A DNA stretch of 64,000 nt from Coleophoma eucalyptorum (lineage: Eukaryota > Ascomycota > Leotiomycetes > Helotiales > Dermateaceae), in contig JALRME010000062.1 in the NCBI GenBank assembly GCA_026120035.1, forward strand, positions 50,334-114,333, read 5' to 3'. Both the position numbers and the translations under genes were made by a program. How positions within the stretch are numbered: position 1 is the stretch's first letter; every line of letters begins with the position of its first letter. Shown here in pieces: positions 37,678 to 41,907 of this stretch. A model generated the notes under the pieces. It worked only from the letters and a program-made list of their open reading frames with translations. It searched no databases and was not told the origin of the DNA.

Positions 37678-38490
37678 ATGCCAAATGTCAGTATGGCGAC
37701 TCTAGTAGAAGAGTGTCCCAGGGAGATCATTTCTACCCAGCGGTCCTGTTATTCTATCTTAGCACTGGCATTTGTGTTTCTTTCTGTTTCCATCCTCATT
37801 CAAATCCCCGCAGCACAGCGCCGAGCCCGCGACGAACTGCAGCTGCTCAAGAAGAAGTACCTGCCCAGCCAATTCTTCCAAGCTTCGGAACCACGCCAGA
37901 AATTTGCGACCTCAGGTAATATTTCTGACCATTCAGAAACCGGTTCTACACGATCCAAAGGAGGGCGCAAGCATCGCAGAGGCGGCAGGAAGGCAAAAGG
38001 CCGAATTCCTCCTCTGGCCGAATCAAGGCAGGAAGAAGAGGAAGAAGAGGTTGAGCAGGATCTCCGACACGCCCATGACCACGTCGATGAACATGCCGAT
38101 GAGATACGAGAGGAGCTCTACGGGCCCGAGGACTCTCTGAGCACTTCAGAGACATTCATCAACCCTGATGAACATCCCCACCGTGATCTCCCAAACCACC
38201 ATCGCACGCCCTCGGTTTTCGAGACGGGAATTCGCAATTTCAACATCAAGAAAGCCGCGGGATCCGATGCCAGACCTTTTGGACTGACCGTGGAGCGGGA
38301 AGGCGATCGCGAGGAAAAGCAAGGCAAGCCATCTACACCAGAGGAGGGAGCCAATGAGGCGGGGAAGGAAGGCGCAAGCACAAGCAAGGACGAGAGAAAA
38401 CCGATCGCTATCAGACTGGATCTCAACCTGGAGCTTGAGATCTTTCTGAAAGCTAAGATCAAGGGAGATGTCACCATTACTTTCCTGTAA
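37678..38490 (+). CDS. Membrane-anchored charged protein ending in a KGDVTI motif
   Basis: 270 residues as an unspliced frame. One hydrophobic segment (SILALAFVFLSVSILIQI, about residues 26-43) is followed by a basic Lys/Arg/Gly stretch, a Glu-rich run and a long polar, probably disordered region. The last ~28 residues (IRLDLNLELEIFLKAKIKGD then VTITFL) alternate polar and hydrophobic, as a beta strand would, and match the tail of the gene at 41.4-41.9 kb. The stop TAA overlaps a possible donor (GTAAGA at 38487). Splicing to the AG at 38543 would replace the last codons by LE and stop at 38550. No function known. Confidence 0.75.
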   Translation: MPNVSMATLVEECPREIISTQRSCYSILALAFVFLSVSILIQIPAAQRRARDELQLLKKKYLPSQFFQASEPRQKFATSGNISDHSETGSTRSKGGRKHRRGGRKAKGRIPPLAESRQEEEEEEVEQDLRHAHDHVDEHADEIREELYGPEDSLSTSETFINPDEHPHRDLPNHHRTPSVFETGIRNFNIKKAAGSDARPFGLTVEREGDREEKQGKPSTPEEGANEAGKEGASTSKDERKPIAIRLDLNLELEIFLKAKIKGDVTITFL

Positions 38491-41377: not shown

Positions 41378-41494
41378 TCACAGTAAGCCGATAGTAACAT
41401 CTCCCTTTACCCTCGCGTACAGGTCAACCTATACAAACCGTTACTACATCAATCCAATGGTAACGTCTCCCTTCACCCTGGCATAAAGATCTAC
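41378..41494 (-). repeat. Tandem duplication of the terminal coding segment
   Basis: Two copies of a 51-base coding unit (41494-41444 and 41428-41378) begin 66 bases apart. They encode 16 residues each plus a stop and differ by one residue (Met/Leu). Twelve of 16 codons differ, eleven of them synonymously. Confidence 0.9.
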
Positions 41495-41907
41495 CTCGAC
41501 TTCAAGATCCAGCTCAATCTTGATTTTCAAACTGCTGTCCCTGACCTCCTTAGGCTGTGGCCTGTCCTTGATTCTCGACTCGCGGATCGGCCAGGTGCGG
41601 TTCATGGGGATCTGTTGGTTTTGTTGCATCTCCCCGCCGTAGCCTTGCTGACCGCCGTATGGATTTTGTTGCTGCGCCGGTGGCTCTTGACGACGCGCCC
41701 GTTGCATAGTACGTTGACCTTGCTTAGGGGCATTTTGCAGAGATTGGTTGTTGGCTTGTTCTTGCTCTTGGCTCTCTGAGTCGGAGGCGTAGTCCTCCTT
41801 GGTCATGTTCTTTTCTCTGTGGGAGTATAATCAGCACTGATTCAAGACTGGTGTCCAAAAAAAAGCACCCTTGGAAATGAGTTTTGGATCACTTACCCGT
41901 CAGACAT
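41378..41907 (-). CDS. Small Gln-rich protein with duplicated KGDVTI terminal exon
   Basis: First exon is only 11 nt (41907-41897); the second starts at 41816. Two endings are possible and both give 127 residues. Reading through the second exon stops at 41444 (...VDLYARVKGDVTIGLM). Removing 41494-41429 as an intron and continuing at 41428 stops at 41378 (...VDLYARVKGDVTIGLL). The removed piece is 66 nt, starts GTAGAT after GAG, has TAGTAAC near its end and ends TATAG. The N-terminal two thirds is Gln-rich and polar, probably disordered; the last 28 residues alternate charge and hydrophobicity and resemble the tail of the gene at 37.7 kb. Function unknown. Confidence 0.75.

What the first reader, a model, noticed from the sequence alone, without database searches (positions are those of the whole stretch)
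41378..41494. Tandem-duplicated terminal exon: splicing or retaining the 66-nt intron gives almost the same C-terminus
The last 16 codons plus stop of this gene are repeated directly downstream. The first copy starts at a GAG|GTAGAT donor and, with 15 more bases, ends TAGTAAC...TATAG just before the second copy. It therefore has every mark of a 66-nt intron. Retaining it ends the protein VDLYARVKGDVTIGLM; removing it ends VDLYARVKGDVTIGLL. Twelve of 16 codons differ between copies and eleven of those changes are synonymous, so both copies seem to have been kept under protein-level selection. This fits the known idea of intron gain by tandem duplication of an AGGT-containing coding segment, here caught in a form where splicing hardly changes the product.
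Basis: partly seen in the sequence, partly recalled or inferred. Interest (0 to 1): 0.8.

Follow-up and report, generated by a model that had tools for sequence, protein, structure and literature searches.

The report
Fungal gene with two interchangeable endings
A small fungal gene carries two copies of its last 16 codons one after the other, placed so that cutting out or keeping a short intron would give nearly the same protein, and both copies look as if natural selection has kept them working for a long time.

Summary
On the minus strand, copy 1 (41494-41444, VDLYARVKGDVTIGLM*) and copy 2 (41428-41378, VDLYARVKGDVTIGLL*) lie 66 nt apart. Of 16 codons 12 differ, 11 of them silently. The 66 nt look like a GT-AG intron with a weak donor (GTAGAT). 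Three in-frame stops, copy 1's own included, precede copy 2, so splicing is the only plausible way to translate it from this gene. An intron gain caught in the act is not supported: a paralogue in the same genome has an ordinary 61-nt intron at exactly this site, and protein calls from other fungi point to introns there too. The copies are not each other's closest relatives: copy 1 resembles an intronless paralogue, copy 2 the intron-bearing one (quartet bootstrap 91%; sisters in 5 of 200 trees). Best reading: an old gene with two usable ends, the intron sometimes kept and sometimes removed. Whether it began as an old tandem duplication or as a spliced-form ending added to an existing intron is open. 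No RNA and no orthologous DNA was available, so splicing is inferred. A new variant of a known kind.

The parts
41897..41907 (-). exon 1 (ATGTCTGACGG, MSDG with the first base of exon 2)
   Evidence: Joins in frame to exon 2; several homologues begin MSDxEK
41817..41896 (-). intron 1, 80 nt, GTAAGT...CCCACAG
   Evidence: splice sites inferred
41495..41816 (-). exon 2, ending in KIKIELDLEVE, last codon GAG
   Evidence: conserved in homologues
41444..41494 (-). copy 1 of the terminal coding segment, VDLYARVKGDVTIGLM, stop TAG; also the 5' part of the putative intron 2
   Evidence: closest of the endings compared is L002 (44 of 51 nt)
41489..41494 (-). putative donor GTAGAT, also codons Val-Asp
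   Evidence: +5 is A, while 9 of 10 hand-picked introns of this genome have +5 G (8 of 10 if one ambiguous gap is read the other way)
41440..41446 (-). putative branch site TAGTAAC, overlapping the stop codon of copy 1
   Evidence: Sequence; 12 nt from the branch-site C, counted in, to the end of the intron
41429..41443 (-). 15-nt spacer TAACGGTTTGTATAG with acceptor TATAG; in-frame TAA and TAG
41378..41428 (-). copy 2 of the terminal coding segment, VDLYARVKGDVTIGLL, stop TGA
   Evidence: best of the endings compared are L005 (42 of 51 nt) and L003 (40 of 51)

Best explanation
A small fungal gene (probably of a Coleophoma-like member of the Helotiales) has two in-register terminal coding segments. 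The first is fused to exon 2; the second lies behind a 15-nt spacer that supplies a branch site and a 3' splice site. The first six bases of copy 1, which encode Val-Asp, double as a weak 5' splice site. If the 66-nt intron is kept, translation stops at the TAG of copy 1 and the protein ends GLM. If it is removed, exon 2 joins copy 2 and the protein ends GLL. Both forms are probably made, because both copies have kept the family's near-invariant C-terminus while silent sites became saturated. The intron position is old: a paralogue uses it with an ordinary intron. Shown: anatomy, coding conservation, the shared intron site. Suggested by short sequences: separate affinities of the two copies. 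Inferred: that splicing happens, that retention also yields protein, and the age.
For: Both copies encode the family C-terminus exactly; of the 120 homologues listed of 607 found, 95 end GDVTIGLM and 7 GDVTIGLL. Of 12 changed codons 11 are silent, P = 2.6e-6 against random single changes; silent sites are saturated. From the end of copy 1 the frame reads TAG TAA CGG TTT GTA TAG, so copy 2 can be translated from this gene only after splicing. If copy 2 had been untranslated 3' UTR, its roughly 11 inferred changes (ML branch 0.23 per site, a rough figure from 48 nt) should have broken the peptide. If copy 1 had always been removed, it should have decayed. No near-identical source of either copy was found in the genome: best matches among the four close paralogues are 44 of 51 and 42 of 51 nt (these searches score only the best candidates). 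Paralogue L005 has GAG|GTAAGT...CTAAC...CTAG|GTTGAT at the same site. The branch-to-acceptor distance is 12 nt, against 10-15 nt in seven of ten hand-picked introns of this genome. Non-NCBI relatives whose exon 1 is already joined (probably from transcripts) end in L in 4 of 9 cases, against 1 of 44 for the others that end in L or M, Fisher P = 0.002 (correcting one mislabelled protein).
Against: No RNA read was seen. The donor GTAGAT lacks +5 G, which 8 or 9 of 10 hand-picked introns have, and the branch site TAGTAAC differs from CTRAY. The test of selection is 16 codons long. All 9 exon-1-joined NCBI proteins of the window gene's type end in M; pooling them with the others weakens the L/M association to P = 0.038. 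That association is also confounded by relatedness (P0010 and P0028 are close), and two of the nine (P0001, P0023) may be misclassified; moving those to the other class gives 4 of 7 against 1 of 46, P = 0.0006. In Drosophila, selection acts against introns whose retention nonsense-mediated decay cannot see (PMC2809761, passages); retention here should be invisible to it, so long survival would run against that trend.
Confidence: 0.6

Rival explanations
1. Spliced-form ending added to an existing intron. The ancestor had an ordinary intron at this site (as L005 has now). Recombination with a processed, intronless ending (cDNA or an L002-like paralogue) fused the coding end to exon 2 but left the old intron's 3' end and last exon downstream: an incomplete intron loss. 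It differs from the best explanation in origin only.
For: L005 and read-through tails of both gene types suggest that the intron site is old. Copy 1 groups with intronless L002 (GLM, TAG) and copy 2 with intron-bearing L005 (GLL, TGA), quartet bootstrap 91%. The repeat covers 51 of 66 nt; the spacer shows no clear match to the end of exon 2 (compared by eye) and looks like an intron 3' end.
Against: Only 51 nt carry the signal, and in the six-sequence tree L003 joins copy 1 in 83 and copy 2 in 71 of 200 bootstraps. Relatives with contiguous endings on contigs of 20 kb and more are many in the list, so intronless may be ancestral. No intermediate was seen in DNA of another species.
Confidence: 0.35
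2. Old tandem duplication. An AGGT-containing terminal segment was duplicated before the paralogues split; copy 1 then decayed into an ordinary intron in some genes (L005), copy 2 was lost in others (L002), and the window gene kept both. It differs from the best explanation in origin only.
For: Both copies begin with GT after AG. Some intron read-through tails keep in-register residues of the ending: P0102 VGEAARVNGDVLLSD (6 of 14, P 0.0014), P0170, P0197 and P0213 (P 0.016, 0.012, 0.020), L005 (3 of 12, P 0.006); pooled over 21 tails P 0.0033.
Against: The pooled signal vanishes without P0102 and P0170 (P 0.20), per-tail values are uncorrected for 25 tails, and P0239, a close relative of P0102, shows 2 of 15. 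The L005 intron core against copy 1 gives only P 0.031, and downstream remnants in L002 and L003 are weak.
Confidence: 0.3
3. [quoted passage not shown]
For: Tandem arrangement, AGGT at both borders, intron length equal to the repeat period.
Against: Silent sites saturated; copies are sisters in 5 of 200 bootstrap trees; the intron position is shared with L005.
Confidence: 0.05
4. Copy 2 is a relic in the 3' UTR that is no longer spliced on; the gene makes only the GLM form.
For: Weak donor; 95 of 120 listed relatives end GDVTIGLM.
Against: Copy 2 is a perfect family ending with a stop, at saturated silent divergence; an unused copy would need to have lost its use very recently.
Confidence: 0.15
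5. The intron is constitutively spliced and copy 1 is a relic not yet decayed.
For: Copy 1 carries GTA-GAT, among the nearest to a donor consensus (recalled) of the Val-Asp codon pairs; the five other endings compared all have GTT.
Against: Copy 1 keeps 16 of 16 residues of the family ending and an in-place stop; its donor has not gained +5 G, which it could not do while encoding Val-Asp.
Confidence: 0.12

Closest known systems
[quoted passage not shown] potato RdRp case PMC4974935, abstract and introduction; Drosophila cases PMC2891723, passages and section 9; fission yeast cases PMC3629103, one passage)
   Same: Tandem copies with AGGT at both borders; intron length equals the repeat period; removal leaves the protein essentially unchanged. 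PMC2891723 (section 9) says that such a duplication will allow intron retention as a temporary or permanent alternative if its size is a multiple of three.
   Different: Here the duplicated piece is the gene's terminal segment with its own stop, both copies are kept at protein level despite saturated silent sites, the copies do not come out as sister sequences, and the intron position exists in a paralogue.
Alternative terminal coding ends through intron retention (general class, recalled)
   Same: Keeping or removing the last intron changes the C-terminal codons and stop codon.
   Different: Retention normally gives a different or truncated end; here it gives the same end but for M or L.
Tandem duplicated or mutually exclusive exons (general class, recalled)
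   Same: Two homologous neighbouring coding segments, one used per transcript.
   Different: Copy 1 has no 3' splice site of its own; it is fused to exon 2.

Membership tests
Spliceosomal (U2-type GT-AG) intron | GT donor, AG acceptor, branch-like motif, length usual for the genome | tested here: met
   66 nt, GT...TATAG, TAGTAAC; ten hand-picked introns of this genome are 47-62 nt, L005's is 61 nt, intron 1 is 80 nt. Donor and branch are weak.
Spliceosomal (U2-type GT-AG) intron | Excised from RNA | not testable with these tools
   No RNA data held
Intron gain by AGGT tandem duplication | AGGT at both borders; intron length equals repeat period | tested here: met
   GAG|GTAG and TAG|GTTG, 66 and 66 nt
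Intron gain by AGGT tandem duplication | The repeat spans the whole intron | tested here: inconclusive
   51 of 66 nt; the 15-nt spacer shows no clear match to the end of exon 2 (sequences, compared by eye), but silent sites are saturated, so decay is possible
Intron gain by AGGT tandem duplication | The two copies are each other's closest relatives | tested here: not met
   Sisters in 5 of 200 bootstrap trees; quartet favours copy 1 with L002 and copy 2 with L005, 91%. Short sequences.
Intron gain by AGGT tandem duplication | The intron is new at this position | tested here: not met
   L005 has an intron at the identical position; read-through tails in other species
Exitron (intron inside a coding exon, no stop; definition recalled) | Retained form reads through the intron into the next coding part | tested here: not met
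   Three in-frame stops, copy 1's own included, before copy 2
Mutually exclusive tandem exons (definition recalled) | Each copy is flanked by its own splice sites | tested here: not met
   Copy 1 is contiguous with exon 2

The most novel reading that the evidence does not exclude
The window gene is a living intermediate of a family-wide process: terminal coding segments duplicated at the GAG|GTN border, both endings usable for a long time, and copy 1 later decaying into the ordinary introns now seen at this site in related genes, so that the stages intact, slightly altered (P0088), half-decayed (P0102, P0170 group) and unrecognisable (L005) of one intron's birth coexist in one gene family.
Probability: 0.2. 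Interest if true: 0.75.

Novelty: new variant of a known kind. Interest (0 to 1): 0.5.

Why it matters
A new intron is usually assumed to face a bottleneck, because poor early splicing damages the product. A gene in which retention and removal give the same protein would show a route with no such cost, and here the arrangement appears to have lasted. It also sets donor strength against coding need: the donor must encode Val-Asp, so it cannot gain +5 G. The gene family would let the path between intronless and intron-bearing states be read from DNA of related fungi.

Tried and rejected
Remnants of copy 2 behind the stops of L002, L003, L004 and L005: 12 query-target comparisons, best L003 against copy 2 (13-nt match, P 0.009) at another offset; not accepted.

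Similarity of the L005 intron core to copy 1: P 0.031, too weak.

Recent copying of copy 2 from a paralogue: no near-identical source among the paralogues found in the own genome.

Stop-codon read-through as the way to translate copy 2: three in-frame stops.

Orthologous DNA: no relative in viral contigs (9 pattern matches, none confirmed), in genome contigs (22 pattern matches, none confirmed) or in plasmids; each answer warns that records very near the window's genome may be left out.

Protein function: no Pfam match above cut-off in three family members; the predicted structure of the retained form is disordered, mean pLDDT 54, pTM 0.16, and was not used for fold searches. None of three C-terminal peptide strings of the family occurs in the paper library.

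Literature on retention giving the same end: brought nothing of this kind in their listings.

A first count of transcript-like relatives had one NCBI-held protein, P0235, under the wrong label; one search repeats it.

Full report
WHAT IS THERE. The gene lies on the minus strand: exon 1 41907-41897, intron 1 41896-41817 (80 nt), exon 2 41816-41495, copy 1 41494-41444, spacer 41443-41429, copy 2 41428-41378. Retained and spliced forms are both 127 aa and differ only in the last residue, M or L. The two 51-nt copies are 66 nt apart; 12 of 16 codons differ, 11 silently, and the stops are TAG and TGA. As a control, I compared the last 16 residues of 227 ORF ends in the window with the 150 nt behind each, all frames of that strand: this gene scores 15 of 16, the other 226 at most 6; 407 ORF ends in 35 other, partly overlapping loci of the genome also reach at most 6.

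THE GENOME AND THE FAMILY. The own assembly has 45.26 Mb in 101 contigs. The L005 protein has a 95% identical counterpart in Coleophoma cylindrospora, so I take the window for a close relative of Coleophoma (Helotiales); this is inference. The family shows no Pfam match above cut-off in three members tested. In an alignment of 45 members all 24 positions of KIELDLEVEVDLYARVKGDVTIGL are invariant or at least 90% alike. Of the 120 homologues listed of 607 found with the spliced protein, 95 end GDVTIGLM and 7 GDVTIGLL. The first search of the own genome found four paralogues: L002, L003 and L004 run through the site without an intron, and L005 has a 61-nt intron GAG|GTAAGT...CTAACTGTGCACTAG|GTTGAT at exactly the same place. 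More distant members, contiguous at the site, lie on C79 and C17, and one in the window itself at 37678-38490.

THE SITE IN OTHER FUNGI. Many database proteins appear to come from intron-blind gene calls that run into the intron. P0161 (Cadophora gregata) and P0169 (102-kb contig) read through an in-frame insert and resume VDLYARVKGD. P0240 and P0254, which by their N-terminal half are relatives of the window gene, resume the ending in another frame as I read them by back-translation (inference). So the intron position is probably not private to the window gene and L005. Of the 24 tails I kept 20 (near-duplicates P0197, P0213 and P0239 and the near-intact P0088 dropped); their second residue is C 8, R 4, G 3, S 2, N 2, F 1, which by the genetic code means +5 G in 15 to 17 of 20. 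Some of the 20 are still related. The window gene, which encodes Asp there, has +5 A.

SPLICE SIGNALS. I placed one intron in each of ten gaps between exons of chaperonin and actin-family genes of this genome, choosing by eye among the frame-consistent candidates listed. By my choice nine of ten have +5 G and lengths are 47-62 nt; one gap (C50) could be read with a +5 A donor instead, giving eight of ten. In the six gaps where all candidates agree on +5, five have G and one A. The choice leaned on branch motifs and family sequence and is not blind. The window intron (66 nt, GTAGAT, TAGTAAC, TATAG) is weaker than usual but not far outside the range. GTA GAT is among the Val-Asp codon pairs nearest to a donor consensus (recalled), and copy 1 is the only one of six endings that has GTA; the others have GTT.

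SELECTION. If changes between the copies were random single-base changes, 11 or more silent ones of 12 would have probability 2.6e-6; silent sites are saturated. Copy 2 cannot be translated by read-through because TAG, TAA and TAG stand in frame before it. A copy 2 never spliced on, or a copy 1 always removed, should have lost its sequence at this divergence. Hence my inference that both forms are made. A recent import of either copy from a known paralogue does not fit: the best matches are 44 of 51 nt (copy 1, L002) and 42 of 51 (copy 2, L005).

HISTORY OF THE COPIES. Copy 1 and copy 2 share 37 of 51 nt and 4 of 17 codons; the fifteen pairs among the six endings range from 32 to 44 of 51 nt. 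Copy 1 shares 10 of 17 codons with L002, copy 2 shares 9 of 17 with L005. In the quartet with L002 and L005, parsimony bootstrap gives 91% for copy 1 with L002 and copy 2 with L005; informative sites are few, 6 against 2 and 1. In a maximum-likelihood tree of six sequences, copy 1 and copy 2 are sisters in 5 of 200 bootstraps, but other pairings of the two copies are not strong either: copy 1 joins L003 in 83 and L002 in 46, copy 2 joins L003 in 71 and L005 in 34; L004 with L005 reaches 122. With 48-51 nt this speaks against a recent tandem duplication but does not fix the tree.

ORIGIN, TWO OPEN ROUTES. Route A: a spliced-form ending was joined to exon 2 of a gene that already had the intron, leaving the old intron end and last exon behind. 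Route B: an old tandem duplication, with copy 1 later decaying to an intron in some genes. For B speak tails that still resemble the ending in register: P0102 6 of 14 (P 0.0014), P0170, P0197 and P0213 (P 0.016, 0.012, 0.020), L005 3 of 12 (P 0.006), pooled over 21 tails P 0.0033. Against it, the pooled signal is gone without P0102 and P0170 (P 0.20), the remaining tails show 0 to 3 matches, and P0239, a near relative of P0102, shows only 2 of 15. P0088 keeps VNLYPRVKGDVTIGLI, 12 of 15, which may be a loosened copy 1 or plain divergence. I lean slightly to A.

A HINT OF SPLICED TRANSCRIPTS ELSEWHERE. Among 79 listed relatives of the window gene's type (chosen by a linker pattern), 9 non-NCBI proteins begin as if exon 1 were joined and so probably come from transcripts; 4 end in L and 5 in M. 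Of the other non-NCBI ones ending in L or M, 1 of 44 ends in L (Fisher P 0.002; 10 with other ends left out). With a stricter definition of the joined start it is 4 of 7 against 1 of 46, P 0.0006. All 9 exon-1-joined NCBI proteins end in M, and pooled with the NCBI proteins the association weakens to P 0.038.

COMPARISON WITH PRINT. Tandem duplication of an AGGT-bearing exon segment is described as a genuine route of intron gain (PMC3443670, passages; PMC4974935, abstract and introduction; PMC3629103, one passage). PMC2891723 (passages and section 9) says such a duplication will allow intron retention as a temporary or permanent alternative when its size is a multiple of three. The case here is close to that prediction but with stop codons inside and an apparently old, doubly conserved ending. 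PMC2809761 (passages) reports selection in Drosophila against introns whose retention escapes nonsense-mediated decay, which this locus would run against. In searches I saw no described case of a retained and a removed intron giving the same ending through a conserved duplicate; apart from the five papers named, I saw listings only.

VERDICT. The best reading is an old gene with two interchangeable ends. Without RNA I put this at 0.6; the corrections made on checking did not call for other odds.

Noticed in passing
window 37678-38490 (+): A 270-aa ORF on the opposite strand, convergent with the gene and about 2.9 kb away, ends RLDLNLELEIFLKAKIKGDVTITFL, a diverged version of the same C-terminal motif.
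   Followed up: partly
L011 (C79) and L013 (C17): Two more genes end GIKLDLEAE[IV]HLTAR[VI]RGD..[VI]GLY with no intron at the site, so a short C-terminal motif is shared by otherwise different proteins.
   Followed up: no
P0151, P0156, P0159, P0163, P0167, P0169, P0038, P0111: Read-through tails suggest further intron sites within the last 16 codons of this family (after LY, after GD, near TIG), so the short C-terminal region may be rich in intron positions.
   Followed up: no
P0102 and P0239: Two related genes end VGEAARVNGDVLLSD and VGEAARGIDEAARVNHNVLLSN where close relatives such as P0013, P0014, P0021 and P0022 have VDLYARVKGDVTIGLM; P0239 has a 7-residue insertion that repeats EAAR.
   Followed up: partly
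window 41440-41446 (-): The stop codon of copy 1 is part of the putative branch site TAGTAAC, so one heptamer would serve translation stop and splicing.
   Followed up: no
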